From Mixia osmundae IAM 14324 (Eukaryota; Basidiomycota; Mixiomycetes; Mixiales; Mixiaceae), in contig NW_014575563.1 in assembly GCF_000708205.1 (NCBI RefSeq), positions 489,361-553,360 on the forward strand: a stretch of 64,000 nt of DNA, read 5' to 3'. The position numbers were made by a program, and so were the translations under genes. Positions 44,058 to 54,100 of the stretch are shown here, in pieces; within the stretch, counting starts at the first letter, position 1, and each line of letters starts with the position of its first letter. The notes below the pieces were generated by a model. It worked only from the letters and a program-made list of their open reading frames with translations, was not told where the DNA came from and searched no databases.

Positions 44058-46183
44058 ATGGACGAAGAGAGGGAGAATGTGCCTGACCGCGACATAATGA
44101 ACGAGTACGGCTTAGGTCGGTTAGCCAGCTATGACAGACCAGAGCTGCTTGAGGAAGATGTCAAGCCGGACTACCTGACGCGTAACAAGAGCGAGAGGCT
44201 ACGTTTGCAAGGCCTTTTGCTGAGCAAGATGTCTCGACCGCCATCGCGTCTCGATGTCGACGAGCGAGTGCTCGACGCGCCCGTTACCCGCGGGGAAGCT
44301 TTCGCACTCTGGATGGTCAACGAAGGCCGTCGGAGAATCTTCTTCGGTGTCTTCCTCATCGTCCAAACCCTTGTCTTTGTGCTCGGTTTCGTCAATTATG
44401 CCTACAGCGACAATTTCGACAATGCGCGTGCGACGTTTCATATCACTTATCCGATCGCACGGGCAGCAGCACTTACGCTCCATTTTGATTTGGCTCTCAT
44501 CCTTCTGCCTGTCTGTCGCAACATGATATCCTTCCTGCGCAACACACCATTAGGAGCTGTCATCCCTTTTGATAGCAATATCACCTTCCACAAGGCTGTA
44601 GCATGGAGCATGGTCAGCGCTAAAGTGCAGCAAGCCGAGCGTGTCTGACCGGTGTCGACAGGTTTTCTTCACGGCTGTCCATGTTACAGCTCATATGGTC
44701 AACTTCGCCCAGCTCGGCATTGCCTCTGGCACGAATGTCGTCGGTTTCCTCGGCGCCAATTTCGCCACGGGTCCAGGCATTACAGGCTGGATCATGACCC
44801 TTGCTTTGGCTGTGATGGTCTGGACAGCGATCGAAAAGAACCGACGAGCCAACTTTGAACGGTTCTGGTATGCTCATCACCTGGGCTTAGTACGCTATAC
44901 ATCGTTCGTAGTTCTCGGGCTAACGCGCAGGACAGGTCTTCTTTCTCATGTGGAGCATCCATGGCATGTTCTGTATGATCCAGCCCGATCGTCCTCCGTA
45001 TTGCTCAGCAAGCTCTATCGGCATCTTTTGGCGCTACTGGCTCGTCGGAGGCACGATTTATTCCTACGAGCGTATCCTGCGAGAGCTCAGATCTCGCCAC
45101 AAGACATACATCACGAAAGTCATCCAGCATCCGTCTAATGTCGTCGAGATTCAATTCCAACGCGAAGGTGCAGTCTCTCGGCCGGGACAGTACATCTTCC
45201 TCAACTGTCCTGCCATCTCGCTATGGCAATGGCATCCTTTCACGCTCACTTCTGCACCCGAGCATGGCTATCTGAGCGTCCACATCAGAATGGTGGGCGA
45301 CTTCACCCGCGCACTGGGCGAGGCTCTCGGCTGCGATCTTGAAGGAGACAAGGGCGGAGCTGCAAAGGCAGGCAGTCAGGAGATCCAGGTCACGAACAAG
45401 CAAGTTCTGCCCCGCATCATGATTGACGGGCCGTTCGGCTCAAGCTCGGAAGACTACCGGAAATTCGACACCGTAGTGCTCGTAGGAGCGTAAGTAATGC
45501 ATGCATAGCGCTCCGAGACTAGCGCTGACCGCAACTTTTGACAGTGGCATTGGCATTACACCATTTGCAAGCATTTTGTCCTCAATCTGGTATCAGAAGA
45601 ACGAAGCTCGTCGCCGCGGCAAGAAGACTCGTCTGACCAAAGTCTACTTCTTCTGGTAATGCCTACCGGCTTTAGCATGAGTAAGCTGAGTCTGTGAGGC
45701 TGTACAGGATCTGTCGGGACACAACGACGCTGAGCTGGTTTCAGAACTTGCTCTCCGCTATCGAAGATCAAGACGACGAGGGATACGTCGAAATCCACAC
45801 TTATGTCACCCAGCGACTGAAAGAGGCAGAACTCAATAATCTGATGATTGCTGACGTCGGATCCGAACGAGACTCAATCACTGGGCTCAAAGCGCCGACG
45901 CATTTTGGCAGACCGAATTGGTCGGCCATCTTTCAGTCGCGTCAGTTCACCAGCAGAGAGTCAGTTGAATCTGGCTGACATTGCACAGTGCAACATCGAC
46001 ATCCGAGTACAGAGGTCGGCGTCTTCTTCTGCGGCCCGAAGCCGTGCGTCTACTTCATCCCACAGACCTTTGGCTGACACGTCGCGCAGGCTTGGCTCTG
46101 CGCTCCATGTCGCCTGCAATAAATTCAGTCAGGCCGATGAAGAAAATGGGACAAAGTTCCTGTTCGGCAAAGAGAACTTCTAG
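44058..46183 (+). CDS. NOXA: NADPH oxidase NoxA (gp91phox type)
   Basis: Transfers electrons from NADPH via FAD and two haems to oxygen, producing superoxide for fungal development and polarity. Seven exons (44058-44612, 44662-44889, 44936-45489, 45545-45655, 45708-45940, 45989-46043, 46090-46183) give about 609 residues. The transmembrane haem region has TYPIARAAALTLHFDLALIL, NITFHKAVAW, FTAVHVTAHMVNF and FWYAHHLGLVFFLMW. FAD binding is at HPFTLTSAPEHG, and NADPH binding at GAGIGITPFASIL and VGVFFCGPKPLG; it ends in KFLFGKENF. There are no EF-hands, so it is NoxA rather than NoxC. About 90 extra N-terminal residues precede the first helix. Confidence 0.95.
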
Positions 46184-46321
46184 TCGGGCGAGCAATGCAC
46201 CCGTTTCCCAGGCTGTCTCCGCGAGCGTTGCGAGAGGCTCAATGTTGACCCTTCTTGACATGCGAAACCCCTGATTGACTGACATCAGTTGCTTGGCAAC
46301 TTTGCTTGCTCAGATACCATC

Positions 46322-49300
46322 ATGGACAAGCTAAGGAAGAGATCTTGGCTCAGACCGGTCAAGAGCAAGAATGCACTTCAGGGAGCAACGGATGCCGTCT
46401 CAACGGCCAGCCAGATCAGCGTCGAAGTTTCGCATCAGCAGACATCTGCCCGGGAACGCAGTTGGCCCTCACTTTCGATCAGGGCAACTCTCGATAGCCG
46501 GTTCATGTCTTCACGGGCCTCGTCCATTCCACAAGCCACGAGTCCAAGCTATATGGGGAGTGATGCTCACTCGTTGTCAACCCTGACTTCTTCTTGCCGA
46601 CCGGAACCTCGCTACCTCGTGGCTGGCGAGATTCCTCGGCCGACGCTCGTGATCGAGGACGTGCAGCTGTTTGACGTTTGCAATGCCAGCCCGGCATACG
46701 ACGACGCCCGGGAAGATCAAGACAGCGTCGCGTCGCCGGCGTCGGTTTTGGGCAGACAGAGCACCGTCTGTTTACGTCGCATGGGTGAGCTGCTCGATCG
46801 CTGCCCGCATGCCGAGAGATCACTGACGTGCGCTCGGTCAAGGGATCGACACAGACGCAGAGAGCGGAGCTGATCCCGATCTCAAGCGCTTCTCATTCCC
46901 TTTACCTGCCTCGACTTCTGTTGGCTCGAGGGCGAGCCTGGTGAAGGAGCCGGCCGGATCCCGAGTACTGACGCCGGCAAGTAGCCCGGCGGTCGCATCG
47001 CCATCCTCTCGTTCGCCACAGTCTCGATCGCCAACGGGATATGGTCCAAGCTCTGCTCTAGCAAGGAGGCCATCTACGTCTGCCGCTCTCTCGCTCATGC
47101 CAAAGCACCCTACGACGGAATATCTCGCCGATCAGCTGAACTCGAAGCAAGAGTATGCTAGCTCAGAATCAGCTATGACAGAGCCTCGGAGACCTTCTTC
47201 GCCCGCGCCACTGGGTAGAGCTGACCAAGTGCTCATTCCCGCACGTAGAGACTCTGTCGATTCTGCAGAGGAAGCCTTGCGTGACCTCAATCTCACTTCG
47301 ACCGACGAGACTGTCTCTAGACCTGTTGCGTTCTCATACGGCCCGACGAGGCCCGTCAGGACCAAGCAATCGCCCGACCTTTCGACGCAGTGGCGCAGAG
47401 TCGACGAGCTTACGGCTGCTCGATCGAGCGATCCCAGCAAGTCGCCGCAAAAGCCATCAGGTCGAGAGCACACGCTCAGATCACCCGCTTCAGCCGATAA
47501 CATAGTTCAGATCCATCGAGATCCGGCTCTGGCATCTAGCGGTAACAGGCTGAGCAAGTCAGGCGTGAGCATCAACAGCACCAGCACCGAGTCGCTCAGC
47601 ATGTGGCCGAGAACCGACAGCTTTCCAGCGACGCTGCATCGAGAGGCGATGCACGATAGATCTGATCTGCCTGCCAATATGCCCGAATGGTCACGCCTTC
47701 AAGCTGACGAGCCTACTTCCTGTGCGTCTCCTGTAGCACCCAATACGTTCGCTGGCTGAGCCATCACAGACCCGAACAATAAGATCGTGCGAGATCTCGA
47801 CTTTGCCATGCGCAAATTACTCTCTGAAGCCGTCTTCAAAGACTTCCTCGAAGATCCGGTGCATTATCTACCCTTGGTCAGCGCAAGCATGTGCTGAAGG
47901 GGACGCCTGTGTTGCACAGCTCGCTCGATGGCGTTTTCGAGAGTACCTCAAGACGACGCGGGGTGATCCGCCTTATCTGCTTGACTGCTGGTGGGATGCC
48001 GAGCTTTTTGCCCGCCAATTCCGCGCACTTCGCCAGGGCGCCCATGACTTTGGACGTGAGTCACTCACTACCTGCTGGAGCAATTCCGAATCTGACATGC
48101 CGCCAGAGCTATACCTTCAGCCTACGGTAGCAATCAGCGACAAAGTTGGCGTAAGCTCCGACAAGATGAGTGATGCCTCGCTAGTCCTCGACTCCATCGC
48201 CACTGCTTCCAACCCAGTAGCTCGCATACAAGATGATATGCTCCGCACGATGTTCAAGACTGACTTCCAATCTTTCGTCAAGACGCGACTAGTCGAGCAA
48301 GCTCGCGTCAAGCTTGGATCTTTTACCCTTCGCGACAAAGAAAAGGGCCAGGGACTCGGCGACTGTTTCGTCATCACCAACCCGAGGCAGAGAGATCATC
48401 CCATTATCGGCGCAAGTGATGCTTTCGTCGAGCTGACCGTCAGTCATCTTCCTGGCCGGTAATTATTGCTGACGCCTGACGTAGGGCTACTCCCGTCAGG
48501 CGATCTGCAGCCGCAACTGTCGGTTCTTACAAGTAAGCATCGTGTCTTGCACATAGAGGCGCTCAAATGCTAGCAGGGCCCGAGTACATCGCGCGAAGCA
48601 GTTGCGCGGATCCGAGTCGCACTTAACACCGGTCAGGCCTGCACCGAGCTGCTCCTCAATTACCGTCAGAACGGACAGCCCTTTTTCAATCTACGTGGGT
48701 ACCGCGCCTCGCCCTTTGCTGCCGCTGACAGTCTGCACCAGTGTGCATCTTCCCCTTGCGCGACACAGATGGCAGCGTTTCGTACTATTGCGGCGGCCAG
48801 GCAAGCGCACAACGACATGCTCTGCTGTCATTCGATAACCGTCATCGCAGATCAACGTATCTGGGCCGTTGAAGTCATCGAAAAGTCTCAGATTTCTGGT
48901 CGGAATCGAAGACGAAGAGCCGAATGGGGCAGGCAGTGAAGTCGAGCCTTCGCCGACGATGTCACAATATCTCACACACAAGCGGTCTAATCTCGAGAGT
49001 CCGGCACAGTGTAATCCCCTCTTCCCGTCTGCAGCCGGCTATCAACCTTCGAGCGCCGAGCTCTCGCGCCACACTTCGGCTCGTTCGGCCATCGTACTCG
49101 ACAGTCTCGCAAATGGCAAAGAGCCACAGCAGACGCCCGGACCAGGTGCAGAGCAGCAGTTCCGCGTCAAAGAAGCCAAAGGTATTGACGAAGCATCGCG
49201 CGAATTCGAGAGCGTTTATTCGAAGGCGATCTTCCTCGAGCCTCACCGCTGCAAGATCCTCTTTGCCACGCAAGTTCTCAGTCTGATTGTATTGCGTATT

Positions 49301-49785
49301 GCTGACAACGCGATGGAAGTGAGCCTTTTCTGGAGTATCTAGGTTTGCCGACAAGCACAGCGAAAGAACGATTCAATTCGGCGGTACTGCGCCAAGATCT
49401 CACCGATTTGCTCCATTCGCCAAAGCCAGAAGGCACGAAGCGATTGCGCGATCAAGTCAGAGCAGCGATTGCAGAAGGTCAAGCATTCAGCGTCTTGACA
49501 GATATCAAGATCAGCTCGACGAGCTTATCGCATATCATGTGGGTCGCACGCCCCTGCACGTGCTGCGGCTGATCAGCATATAGCCCGCGCAAGAAGACCT
49601 TGGCCCGACAGAGAGGTGAGTGCAATACATTTGAGGCTGAAGTAGCTGACGGGGGAAGACAGGCATGCGTGCGTGCCATCTTTGCACCAAAGTGTACGCT
49701 GACAAGCTGGGCAGTACATGCAACGCCCATCAAGGACACTTCTGGCTCTATCTTTGCCTTTGTTGCGCTCTTTGGTACAGACTGA
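46322..49785 (+). CDS. RGS-LOV blue-light photoreceptor
   Basis: Twelve exons are modelled: 46322-46784, 46843-47721, 47770-47858, 47920-48055, 48107-48438, 48485-48532, 48577-48694, 48742-48800, 48851-49273, 49324-49538, 49584-49615 and 49715-49785, about 954 residues. About 450 disordered residues precede an RGS domain (SEAVFKDFLEDP, FREYLKTTRG, LLDCWWDAELFARQFRAL). The LOV domain starts at FVITNPRQRDHPIIGASDAF, with ELTGYSRQAICS and the photoactive SRNCRFLQG (Cys 645). LLLNYRQNGQPFFNLL holds both flavin-contact Asn, and YYCGGQINV the conserved Gln. A C-terminal region (FESVYSKAIFLEPHRCKILF) follows. Order and motifs match the fungal RGS-LOV family typified by Botrytis BcLOV4, which binds anionic membrane lipid in blue light. 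The last three exons are less certain. Confidence 0.9.
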
Positions 49786-49794
49786 TGCAATGCA

Positions 49795-50481
49795 CTACAC
49801 TATCGCTTCCTTGGGCTTCTTGGCTGTGATGCTCCGGTGAAATCAGCATGAGACAGAGCGCATGGGAATGGAGACGCGCCTCCATATTTGCTCCTGGCTT
49901 TGCGCTTGCCTGCTACGCCATTGAAGTCTAGTGCTCCACGTACGACCTTGTATCTATCGTGACCGTTTAGCATGGTCTATCAGCACAGTCTCATGCTGAC
50001 CTGACGCCTGGCAAATCTTGCGTTCTGCCACCTCTGAGCAAAACGACAGAGTGTTCTTGTAAGTTGTGTCCCTCTCCAGGAATGTATGCGAGCACAGAGA
50101 TGCCCGTTGTGAGCTTGACTTTGGCTACTTTACGGACGGCAGAATTAGGCTTCTTCGGCTTGACCGTGTAGACTCGACTGAGTGCACGCAGTCTGCATGA
50201 GCTCAACTCTAGCTGAAGGCAGGCAGCGCGCACCTGCAGACGCCCTTGCGCTGGGGGCAAGCCTTGAGTGCGACATTGCCTTTCTTCTCGATCGGTGTCC
50301 GCCGCGGGTGCTTCATGACCTGATTGAGCGTCGTGAGAGCAGGAGAGGTCGAGCTGAATGGACGAGCACTCGTGCTGGCTACAGGCATCGGCGGGGGTCG
50401 CAAGACTCGCAAAGGGGCTGCTCGAGGCCGAGCTACCGGGATGATGGCTAGTCTGGTGAGTCTACTAGCAAGTGCACTCAT
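49795..50481 (-). CDS. MRPS12: Mitochondrial ribosomal protein uS12m
   Basis: Small-subunit mitochondrial ribosomal protein at the decoding centre. Four exons (50481-50234, 50177-50001, 49953-49880, 49823-49795) give about 175 residues. A presequence of about 55 residues ([19 protein letters not shown] to SSTSPA) precedes the S12 core: [86 protein letters not shown] and RSKYGAKKPKEA. The last intron needs a GC donor (GAG|GCGCGT, 49879) to give the universal KYGxKKP ending. The stop is 9 bp from that of the convergent RGS-LOV gene. Confidence 0.92.
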
Positions 50482-51172: not shown

Positions 51173-54100
51173 CTAATCTTCTTCGTTTTCGAGCACGATG
51201 TATGCTTCCGCGCGCTGAGATGACCAAAGCTTCCACGCGAGCAAGCCGACGCACGTCAAGCCGATGATGGCCAGGATGACGACGACGATGATCCAGCCAA
51301 ACTTGTGCCAGAATGTAGGTCGATAGGGTAGCAAGACGGAATCGATGAGTAGAACGCCACCGCCGAAGCTCATCCTGCTTCGTTGAATCGATGCATCATG
51401 CTCACCGGTGCTAGCGTCATCGGAGGTAGCGAAGACAGGCGTCGCCTTGCCCCAAGAGAGGATGCGCGCCCAGTCTTTACGACCTTGCTCGCCCCTCGCC
51501 CCATCGACGCCAACGAGCCAGCTGTCTTCGGCAAACCGTCTCAGAGCGACCCGACCGCTACTTTTCGGATCGTCTTCACTGAGCAGAGTGTCGTAGACTG
51601 CCGAGTCTGCAAGTTCCAAAGGTAGTCGTCCGCTTGGAAAGCCGTGTCGCGGTTCGGCTATAGATGACCGCGAAGGCGGATCTGATGGTATGATGTGTAA
51701 CTTCATGAGTTCAGTGAGCGCGGGGATATCACCGAGGTAGTAAGTCAGATTGAGTGCTGTGAAGGCTTTGTCGGTCGGACAGAGCACAGTGTATGAGCGT
51801 CGCCTGAAAGGCGCCTTGTTGAGCTTCTTGCGAAGCATTGCTGCACTTGCTTCGTCGGGAGGTGGAGAGCCGTCTGCCACCCAGGTAAGGTTGGTGAGTC
51901 GGAGGAGCTCAGCCATTGTAGATGCTTTGCCACCTCGCATGAGCTTATCGATCGAGATGCTGACCGTGGGTGGCAAGACGACGTGATCGGTCACATGGAG
52001 CACTCCCGTTTTGGTGAGAATGTTGGATTCTAATAAATGGGCATCGCGAGTATCGCCATTGACTCTGAAGCCGCTCAGGGTCGGTCCGTGGATTTGTAGA
52101 GCGCCTGTGTCGTTCTTGCCAATATAGATGCCCGATCCTTCCAGTGTCATGTATTCGTTTGAGCCGGGCTGGAAGTCTTCCTCGTAGACCAATTCTCTGA
52201 CTGCGTGATATGACAGAGTCGAGACGAGCTCGCGCCGCGAAGTCGGCAGTAAGAGATAAGACATGACGAGACCTAGCCTGCGAAATGCATCGTTGTCGGG
52301 CGCAAGGAACGTCAAAGCCGGCTGCTTTTTGAGCTTCTTATCTAGATCTGCAGCGAAGACGCTCGCAACAAACGTCGATAGGCGGAGATCGGAAACCGCC
52401 GTTTCGATGACGTTTGGAGGCGCTTCGAGCATTTGAGAGATCAAGTAGATGATAGAATTGCCCACAACCACAGGCGAAGCGATAACGCTGGCGGTGTTGA
52501 AGCCCAGATCGGTAGGCTTCTCCGGCTTTGGCTTGGAGAAGAGACTGGCTGGTTCTGATTCTGATTGTGATACCGATATTGTGATCAATTGGGGCGCATG
52601 GTCGAGACTATCGGGCTCGAGCAAGGTAGGCAGTAGCATGCCATCTGCTAGATCCTTGCTAGTCCACTTGCCGGGCACAAGATGATACTGAAGCGCTTCG
52701 GTCAATGCGCGCGTTCCTTGGGCGGGCAGCGTCCTATCCCATCCCGATTCCCATCGTTCAAGAACGTCATCTCGTACTGCCAAGATGGTCATGGAAGCGT
52801 TGCTCGACTGGACATGCTTGGAAAGCTCCGCCGAGCGCAGTAAAGCCACAAAACGAGTGGCGTTGAGCGCAATGAGATACTTCTCCGGTGTCAGCGTGAA
52901 ACTGTCCTCTGGCGGTAGAAGCAGTGTATCGACGATGTGCTGTTTGTCAGCGATCAGGACTGCACGGTCTTTTAGTGCGTGCTGCGCACCATGACACCGT
53001 TTTGCGCAAGGATGTCGTAATCTACCAAAGCACTCCCATTGACTTCTGGCACGCCGTTGTTCACCACGAGCGCAAGAGATGCGCCTGATCGAGTCGGCAC
53101 TTCAGAGATCATGAGCTGAGTCGTGTAGGTCATAGAGAGCTAGCTTACACAAGGTCTCGTTCTTGACCTTGGCATAGTAGCCGATCTGTTTGCTTGAGCT
53201 GAGGTGATGTTGCAGTATCTTCTCGAGATCGTCCTGTGCAAAGCCAGAAGCAAGATATCGTTTCTGTTGCGCATTTCAGCTGAGATCCGAGGCAATGCCA
53301 GCGACTGACCTCGTATTCGTCGAGAGCATCCCAAGCCTTATCGCTGGGTGCAAAGAGAGTCAAATGCGTGTGATTCATCCGTTTGTTGAGCTCGTCCGTG
53401 CCGAAGAGAGCTCGGAACTGCGCAAGGTCTGGATGGTCGACAATTTGCTGCGAGAGGTTTCGGGGCGGATCGAGCACGCCATCCAGCGGCACGAGGTTGC
53501 CGTTGGTTGCGCTGCGTGATATACCGCTAGTGACACCACCTGCACCTTGTGCAGAGACGCCGACGAGCAAAGGGGATGGCTTGTCTGTTGTCTTACTTGG
53601 CGCGATGAAGAGCTTTTGACCTTGACCGGCGAGCCAGCCGTAGTCATCCTCATACTGATCGCGTGTGTCCAACTGATCGTCATGACCGTCTCCCATGCCA
53701 GGTGACCCGGGCCGGCCTTGACCGGCTTTGCGTGATGGTATGAGCATCGTCTCGTGCATCTCAACCTGATCATTGGCGTTTGCAGTGTCGTTGAGCGTAT
53801 AGTTGAGCAGGTGATACAGCAGCGTGGCTCTCAGCTCTGCTTGTATGTTGTCCACTGGAGTGTCCAGCTTGAACGGATGACGAGCTGTCTGGTTCTGGAT
53901 TCTCTTGATGGCATCATTCGTCGGCGCAAAGAAAGTCGAACCATTGAGCGCATTCAGCGTGGGGACAAGTCGGGCTCGCTGGACCAGTCTGAGCAAGAGC
54001 GAGAAGTCGGCGTCGGCGGAGAGCAAGTCCACGAGAGTCGTCGACTGGGTGTGTATGCCTGCACTCTGCTGACTGCCAAGCACACGCTGATCTTGGCTCG

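What the first reader, a model, noticed from the sequence alone, without database searches (positions are those of the whole stretch)
46322..49785. Intact RGS-LOV blue-light photoreceptor gene
The gene joins an RGS fold to a LOV domain that keeps NCRFLQ (photo-adduct Cys 645), both flavin-contacting Asn (LLLNYRQNGQPFFNLL) and the terminal Gln (YYCGGQ). It therefore looks able to bind flavin and form the light adduct. Architecture agrees with the known BcLOV4-type family, which moves to membranes in blue light. Here it carries about 450 extra disordered N-terminal residues. It would link light directly to heterotrimeric G-protein signalling.
Basis: partly seen in the sequence, partly recalled or inferred. 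Interest (0 to 1): 0.75.

Follow-up and report, generated by a model that had tools for sequence, protein, structure and literature searches.

The report
Blue-light receptor with altered outputs
The fungus Mixia carries two genes of one light-sensing protein family, and the one read here keeps the light-reactive cysteine and the main flavin-contacting residues but none of six residues by which such proteins are thought to grip G proteins and no net positive charge where most relatives have a basic helix that is thought to bind membranes, so it likely senses blue light and would pass the signal on in some other way.

Summary
The gene is real. The window is Mixia osmundae; a 13-exon model at 46322-49785 gives 956 residues identical to the C-terminal 956 of public protein E5Q_01178, which appears wrongly fused to the upstream NADPH oxidase. 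The LOV domain has Cys645, Asn677, Asn687 and Gln708, so flavin photochemistry is likely. (1) The RGS region is RGS only by family profile; it keeps 0 of 6 canonical Galpha-contact residues, like 34 of 50 basidiomycete rows (itself included; none keeps Asn88), whereas 10 ascomycete relatives keep 3 to 6. (2) The basic linker helix that is thought to bind membranes in BcLOV4 is absent or charge-neutral here, though the genome's second RGS-LOV gene and most relatives have one. [quoted passage not shown] The long N-terminus is not exceptional. Best reading: a divergent paralogue, a light sensor that is probably neither a Galpha GTPase activator nor an autonomous lipid binder, and would signal through LOV/PAS contacts, possibly with its sister protein. 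New variant of a known kind; no protein was tested.

The parts
46322..49785 (+). RGS-LOV gene (copy A), 13 exons, 956 aa: 46322-46784, 46843-47721, 47770-47858, 47920-48055, 48107-48438, 48485-48532, 48577-48694, 48742-48800, 48851-49269, 49320-49538, 49584-49615, 49663-49668, 49715-49785
   Evidence: open frame, 12 introns (44-61 nt; ten GT-AG, two GC-AG), product identical to the last 956 aa of E5Q_01178 (P0001)
46322..47720 (+). Region before the RGS-like domain, residues 1-447, Ser/Pro-rich
   Evidence: sequence; coordinates; length compared with relatives; disorder not computed
47781..48333 (+). RGS-like region, about residues 452-598, keeping 0 of 6 canonical Galpha contacts
   Evidence: family profile to RGS7 2a72 E 1.9e-8; contact residues YLGTTS against ENNLDR; no match on its own
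48352..48800 (+). LOV domain, about residues 605-708, Cys645 (48518-48520), Asn677, Asn687, Gln708
48851..49201 (+). Linker between LOV and C-terminal domain, residues 709-825; the segment position-matched to relatives' basic helix has net charge 0
49202..49782 (+). C-terminal domain, residues 826-956, predicted PAS
   Evidence: PAS_9 E 0.0043, below cut-off; two relatives' models give PAS-like strand/helix order and match a LOV-PAS structure best
49663..49668 (+). 6-nt microexon contributing to G-M-L of the GMLHATP motif
   Evidence: the 7 relatives aligned fill these columns without a gap (GMMHLTP, GVLHLTP, GTLHISP and others)
48801..48850 (+). GC-AG intron
   Evidence: junction GGQ|INVSG resembles relatives' GGQTNVTG
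49270..49319 (+). GC-AG intron
   Evidence: junction aligns with relatives without a gap
44058..46183 (+). Upstream NADPH oxidase gene, read here as a separate gene; E5Q_01178 joins it to the RGS-LOV gene by a putative 180-nt intron 46109-46288
   Evidence: native end ...FGKENF aligns to the last residue of human NOX2; the fused end shortens the Pfam match from profile position 155 to 147 of 156; coordinates

Best explanation
The gene encodes one of two RGS-LOV-family proteins of Mixia osmundae, with a LOV domain that keeps the cysteine and main flavin-contacting residues of blue-light photochemistry but with an RGS-like region that has none of six canonical Galpha contacts and a linker without net positive charge where most relatives carry a basic helix, so it is likely a working light sensor that probably neither activates Galpha GTPase nor binds membranes by itself. 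Inferred steps: blue light would form the Cys645-flavin adduct, the change would pass through the conserved post-LOV segment to the C-terminal predicted PAS domain, and the output would be a light-dependent protein-protein contact, most simply LOV/PAS dimerisation with itself or with the sister protein that has the basic helix. The RGS-like region would serve as an intramolecular lid or contact surface and not as a GTPase activator. None of these functional steps was measured.
For: LOV residues and homology. Zero of 6 Galpha contacts, against 3-6 of 6 in 10 ascomycete rows; one other RGS protein of the same genome (C5) has ENLGFW, and three Galpha loci exist above cut-off. Position-matched linker net charge 0 against +2 to +6 in 12 hand-picked others. 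Sister gene with intact LOV motif and basic helix. C-terminal domain PAS-like. LOV is 60% identical to relatives (median of 48) while RGS-like region, linker and C-terminal domain are 29, 24 and 30%, so sensing is the most constrained part.
Against: Partner, dimerisation and output are untested. My helix criterion is loose: shuffled linkers pass in about a third of cases, and 8 of 38 other basidiomycete rows fail it too, among them Rickenella, whose basic segment is visible by eye. Seven of 19 aligned LOV positions differ from oat LOV2. Contact residues rest on alignment of a domain about 30% identical; two ascomycete rows left out of the count also lack the EN pair, and so does the genome's C6 RGS protein. 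A membrane helix could lie elsewhere. No structure of this very protein was predicted.
Confidence: 0.5

Rival explanations
1. It works like BcLOV4: light exposes a lipid-binding element and the protein moves to the membrane, bringing an active RGS domain to Galpha.
For: Same domain order; LOV motif intact; post-LOV segment resembles relatives. An ascomycete protein with RGS and PAS/PAC, MoRgs5, was reported to interact with Galpha MagB, although the same paper says its role may be independent of G proteins and its deletion showed no phenotypic change (PMC3248559, passages).
Against: 0 of 6 Galpha contacts and no basic helix found in the linker; the genome's other copy has one.
Confidence: 0.15
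2. The RGS-like region still binds a G protein or other GTPase through a non-canonical face, as GRK RH domains do (the GRK comparison is recalled).
For: The family profile also matches GRK RH domains (rhodopsin kinase E 2.2e-5, GRK2 E 0.0034); loss of contacts is shared, 34 of 50 rows keep none, which suggests a changed and not a decayed use.
Against: The region is only about 29% identical among relatives; no partner is known to me.
Confidence: 0.17
3. Copy A is a gene losing function, with copy B doing the family's work.
For: Long end branch (1.09); two output elements not found.
Against: 13 exons in frame with usable splice sites; model identical to that of an annotation project that used RNA-seq; LOV about as conserved as in copy B (60% against 64% median); copy B's branch is nearly as long (0.99).
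Confidence: 0.12
4. The public fusion is real: one transcript makes a NADPH oxidase with a light-sensing tail.
For: The annotation project used RNA-seq hints, and the two genes are 138 bp apart on one strand.
Against: The fused model needs a 180-nt intron that removes the conserved oxidase C-terminus, which otherwise aligns to the last residue of human NOX2; the gene's other introns are 44-61 nt; no other protein in the listed rows (120 of 433; 68) carries the oxidase Pfam domains.
Confidence: 0.04

Closest known systems
BcLOV4 of Botrytis cinerea (RGS-LOV). Its own sequence was not fetched; Botryotinia convoluta P0071 stands in for it
   Same: Order RGS, LOV, linker, C-terminal domain; LOV motif; homologous RGS (hhalign E 2.8e-13) and C-terminal domain (E 1.1e-14) between basidiomycete and ascomycete profiles
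   Different: P0071 has all six Galpha contacts and the basic linker segment GKTSFFKSFKKY; the Mixia protein has neither, and has 451 residues before its RGS-like region
Mixia osmundae L969DRAFT_55472 (copy B, L019 3054-5121)
   Same: Same architecture; LOV 62% identical; also 0 of 6 Galpha contacts (GKHESA)
   Different: Basic linker segment RKTLASRIFSTGRSKRN; one intron against twelve
Rickenella mellea BD410DRAFT_590344 (P0002)
   Same: Highest identity to copy A over the tree columns, 42%; long N-terminus
   Different: Segment GFFGKLFNKS in the linker, although it fails my helix criterion
Brucella abortus LOV-HK, LOV-PAS part (6pps)
   Same: Best Foldseek match of both relatives' models, 340 and 363 columns, more than the LOV domain alone
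   Different: Bacterial histidine kinase; domain placement differs (rmsd 24.7 and 26.3)
MoRgs5 of Magnaporthe oryzae
   Same: N-terminal RGS with C-terminal PAS and PAC (PMC3248559, passages)
   Different: Reported to interact with Galpha MagB; not compared by sequence here

Membership tests
LOV photoreceptor domain | Photo-adduct Cys in NCRFLQ with flavin-contacting Arg, Gln, two Asn and terminal Gln | tested here: met
   Cys645, Arg646, Gln649, Arg662, Asn677, Asn687, Gln708 align with oat LOV2; 12 of 19 positions listed are identical; which residues contact flavin is recalled
LOV photoreceptor domain | Binds flavin and bleaches at 450 nm | not testable with these tools
   needs purified protein
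RGS-LOV architecture family | RGS-family region directly before LOV, homologous to that of ascomycete RGS-LOV proteins | tested here: met
   basidiomycete against ascomycete RGS profiles E 2.8e-13; profile to RGS7 E 1.9e-8; the Mixia sequence alone is not detected
RGS-LOV architecture family | Shared C-terminal domain | tested here: met
   profiles E 1.1e-14; up to 38% identity to a relative
BcLOV4-type light-regulated lipid binder | Polybasic amphipathic helix between LOV and the C-terminal domain | tested here: not met
   criterion failed in copy A; met in copy B, 30 of 38 other basidiomycete, 9 of 10 ascomycete and 4 of 10 rows of the Phenoliferia-Sporobolomyces clade; shuffles pass in about a third; position-matched segment net 0
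BcLOV4-type light-regulated lipid binder | Membrane translocation in blue light | not testable with these tools
   needs cells or vesicles
Canonical RGS GAP domain | Galpha contacts (RGS4 numbering E87, N88, N128, L159, D163, R167) | tested here: not met
   residues Y, L, G, T, T, S; the list of contacts is recalled
PAS fold (C-terminal domain) | PAS strand/helix order and PAS family score | tested here: inconclusive
   predicted two strands, helices, three strands in two relatives and LOV-PAS as best Foldseek hit, but Pfam scores stay below cut-off and the Mixia domain itself was not modelled

The most novel reading that the evidence does not exclude
Basidiomycetes have abandoned the G-protein side of RGS-LOV: the RGS fold became a pseudo-RGS lid, and in Mixia a second receptor has also shed its membrane helix, so that a soluble light-sensing subunit tunes its membrane-binding sister by light-dependent mixed dimers, a two-component photoswitch made from one ancestral single-component one.
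Probability: 0.25. Interest if true: 0.7.

Novelty: new variant of a known kind. Interest (0 to 1): 0.5.

Why it matters
The name RGS-LOV suggests that these proteins join light to G-protein signalling, and BcLOV4 is used as a single-component membrane switch in optogenetics (PMC8993538 and PMC13123498, passages). The lack of Galpha contacts in the basidiomycete rows compared here makes that link directly testable and predicts that the RGS fold has another job there. A natural copy with a conserved LOV but no basic helix is a ready control for what the helix does. The C-terminal domain, called 'of unidentified function' in the 2022 review PMC8993538, gets a predicted identity. The gene is also hidden in databases inside what looks like a chimeric oxidase entry.

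Tried and rejected
My earlier splice models were wrong at introns 3, 8, 9 and 11 and were replaced after comparison with relatives and E5Q_01178. Searches were run with the earlier 965-residue model.

A Mixia-specific duplication: the trees leave copies A and B unresolved; holding them together is not rejected (AU p 0.355); placing A with a ten-row clade of Phenoliferia, Sporobolomyces, Rhodosporidiobolus and relatives is weakly rejected (p 0.031). I claim neither. Copy A is not alone in lacking the helix: that clade passes the criterion no more often than its shuffles (4 of 10, 4.8 expected), and Phenoliferia P0127 has a linker of net charge -7 without a basic helix.

18-residue lipid-helix scan: copy A no better than shuffles (a fraction 0.51 of 200 shuffles did as well), copy B better (0.005); several relatives, Rickenella among them (0.84), also did no better than shuffles, so I added. 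The 11 relatives's segment list were picked by hand.

C-terminal domain against LOV by hhalign: suggestive only (basidiomycete against basidiomycete LOV E 1.5e-4, probability 25%; against ascomycete LOV 0.0014; ascomycete C-terminal against basidiomycete LOV 2.1e-4, against ascomycete LOV 0.066; controls 0.65 and 0.93). Of 10 C-terminal domains scanned, 2 had a sub-threshold PAS hit and 8 none. A PDB profile search reached only E 0.66. The VIA-align rows shown covered the LOV domain almost alone, so they say nothing on the other parts.

Genome controls: of the two other RGS loci in the genome, C5 has ENLGFW and C6 does not (RALLVQFW).

Rows: of 433 hits (120 listed) I took 49 relatives by hand; one search used 44 of them, one search used 38 of them plus 20 of the 68 (58 relatives and the two Mixia copies), and searches use that set. 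Left out of the ascomycete count: Saitoella P0064 and Lachnellula P0110, which branch apart with long branches; by eye neither has the EN pair.

Papers: the two PNAS papers of Glantz and colleagues and Berlew 2020 are not held. Full-text searches listed none that I recognised as describing this gene or basidiomycete RGS-LOV proteins; one search showed 20 of 50 Mixia papers and 15 of 27, so this is limited. I saw passages only, of PMC8993538, PMC13137770, PMC13123498, PMC12941744, PMC9308134, PMC10054466, PMC3376729, PMC10056346, PMC7493669 and PMC3248559.

Full report
What the sequence is. A protein search with my first splice model returned a 1552-residue Mixia osmundae IAM 14324 protein, E5Q_01178, at 95% identity; the window is G000:C1:489361-553360 of a 13.5-Mb genome. 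After correcting four junctions, the 13-exon model 46322-49785 gives 956 residues identical to the C-terminal 956 of E5Q_01178. The Mixia gene models of the genome project were produced by AUGUSTUS from RNA-seq alignments (PMC3376729, passages), which makes transcription likely but does not prove each junction. Twelve introns are 44-61 nt, ten GT-AG and two GC-AG; one exon is 6 nt long. The microexon helps to spell GML before HATPIKD, and the seven relatives aligned with it fill those columns without a gap.

The public entry looks chimeric. Upstream at 44058-46183 lies an NADPH oxidase gene. With its native end it aligns to human NOX2 through the last residue; the fused model uses a 180-nt intron, 46109-46288, that deletes this end and shortens the Pfam match. 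I therefore treat them as two genes 138 bp apart, with the fusion kept as a low-odds rival.

LOV. Pfam PAS_9 E 1.2e-17; oat LOV2 E 8.5e-28. Of 19 aligned positions listed, 12 are identical to oat LOV2, including Cys645, Arg646, Gln649, Arg662, Asn677, Asn687 and Gln708; seven differ (oat Asn414 to Cys, Asn425 to His, Ile470 to Leu, Phe494 to Leu, Leu496 to Ile, Phe509 to Tyr, Ile510 to Cys). Photoactivity is likely, not shown. In the genome, 3 of 10 exact matches to an NCRFL-type DNA pattern lie in LOV domains: this gene, a white-collar-1-like gene, and a second RGS-LOV gene; the pattern read backwards had 13 matches, so the pattern alone means little.

The second copy. G000:C16 holds copy B, 670 residues in my model (669 in the public L969DRAFT_55472, which differs by one residue at the intron), with one intron against twelve in copy A. 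It has LOV Cys351 and the basic linker segment RKTLASRIFSTGRSKRN. A and B are 62% identical in LOV, 32% in the RGS-like region and 27% in the C-terminal domain. Their relationship to each other is unresolved.

RGS. The copy A region alone matches nothing; a 13-member family profile matches RGS7 at 1.9e-8, and the basidiomycete profile is homologous to the ascomycete one (2.8e-13). Six Galpha-contact positions (recalled from RGS4-Galpha structures) were read off an alignment with RGS7 and RGS17. Ten ascomycete rows keep 3 (1 row), 4 (1), 5 (3) or all 6 (5). Of 50 basidiomycete rows, the two Mixia copies included, 34 keep none, 7 one, 7 two and 2 three; 0 of 50 keep N88 and 0 of 50 keep L159 (Ser was allowed at N128). 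Two further ascomycete rows, Saitoella and Lachnellula, were not in the count and lack the EN pair. Copy A reads YLGTTS, copy B GKHESA. One other RGS protein of the genome (C5) has ENLGFW, a second (C6) does not; Galpha genes are present at three loci above cut-off, so the pathway exists. In Magnaporthe, the RGS protein with PAS/PAC, MoRgs5, was reported to interact with Galpha MagB, although its authors add that its role may be independent of G proteins (PMC3248559, passages). Non-canonical binding is not excluded.

Linker. In BcLOV4 a polybasic amphipathic helix between LOV and the C-terminal domain is thought to bind lipids (PMC8993538, passage; PMC13137770, passage). A stated criterion was met by 9 of 10 ascomycete rows, 30 of 38 other basidiomycete rows, 4 of 10 rows of the Phenoliferia-Sporobolomyces clade, and copy B, not by copy A; shuffled linkers gave 4.2, 13.0 and 4.8 expected, so the criterion is weak for any single protein. 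The segment of 36 residues before the GAE-like motif has net charge 0 in copy A, +6 in copy B and +2 to +6 in 11 hand-picked relatives; copy A's counterpart ARSAIVLDSLANGKE (residues 785-799) has hydrophobic residues but no net charge.

C-terminal domain. Pfam scores are sub-threshold or absent. AlphaFold models of Botryotinia P0071 (mean pLDDT 69.8) and Leucosporidium P0032 (65.0) show two strands, helices and three strands here, with ten-residue means mostly 74-97 and a loop at 54-55 in P0071. The best Foldseek match of both is a LOV-PAS construct over 340 and 363 columns (E 2.2e-14, 1.1e-13); TM-scores are low and rmsd high because the two domains are placed differently. I call it predicted PAS.

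Interpretation. The most constrained part is the sensor. Neither known output element of the family was found in copy A; one of them, the Galpha face, is largely missing across the basidiomycete rows compared. The most economical mechanism left is light-dependent protein contact through LOV/PAS, possibly with copy B. This is inference. I rate it a new variant of a known kind, interest 0.5.

Noticed in passing
44058-46288: Public model E5Q_01178 fuses the NADPH oxidase to the RGS-LOV gene; the native oxidase end KENF aligns with human NOX2's last residues.
   Followed up: yes
49663-49668; 48801-48850; 49270-49319: A 6-nt microexon and two GC-AG introns in one gene.
   Followed up: partly
L019 3054-5121: Second RGS-LOV gene with one intron; the intron-poor copy is the one with the basic helix, which could point to a retrocopy or to intron loss.
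   Followed up: partly
P0029 and P0127 (Phenoliferia psychrophenolica): Neighbouring locus tags RQP46_001054 and RQP46_001055 are both RGS-LOV-like, a probable tandem pair; neither linker passes the helix criterion.
   Followed up: no
linker of copy A, residues 741-748 (PSPTMSQY): Short motif like SPTM in the linker, matched in 28 of 50 basidiomycete rows and 0 of 10 ascomycete rows; in the P0032 model this stretch lies at a helix with pLDDT about 90.
   Followed up: partly
L024 1626-4067: White-collar-1-like LOV/PAS protein of Mixia with what looks by eye like the start of a GATA-type zinc finger.
   Followed up: no
49991-50461 (-) and 51173-53101 (-): ORFs that look by eye like a mitochondrial ribosomal protein S12 and a fasciclin-domain membrane protein.
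   Followed up: no
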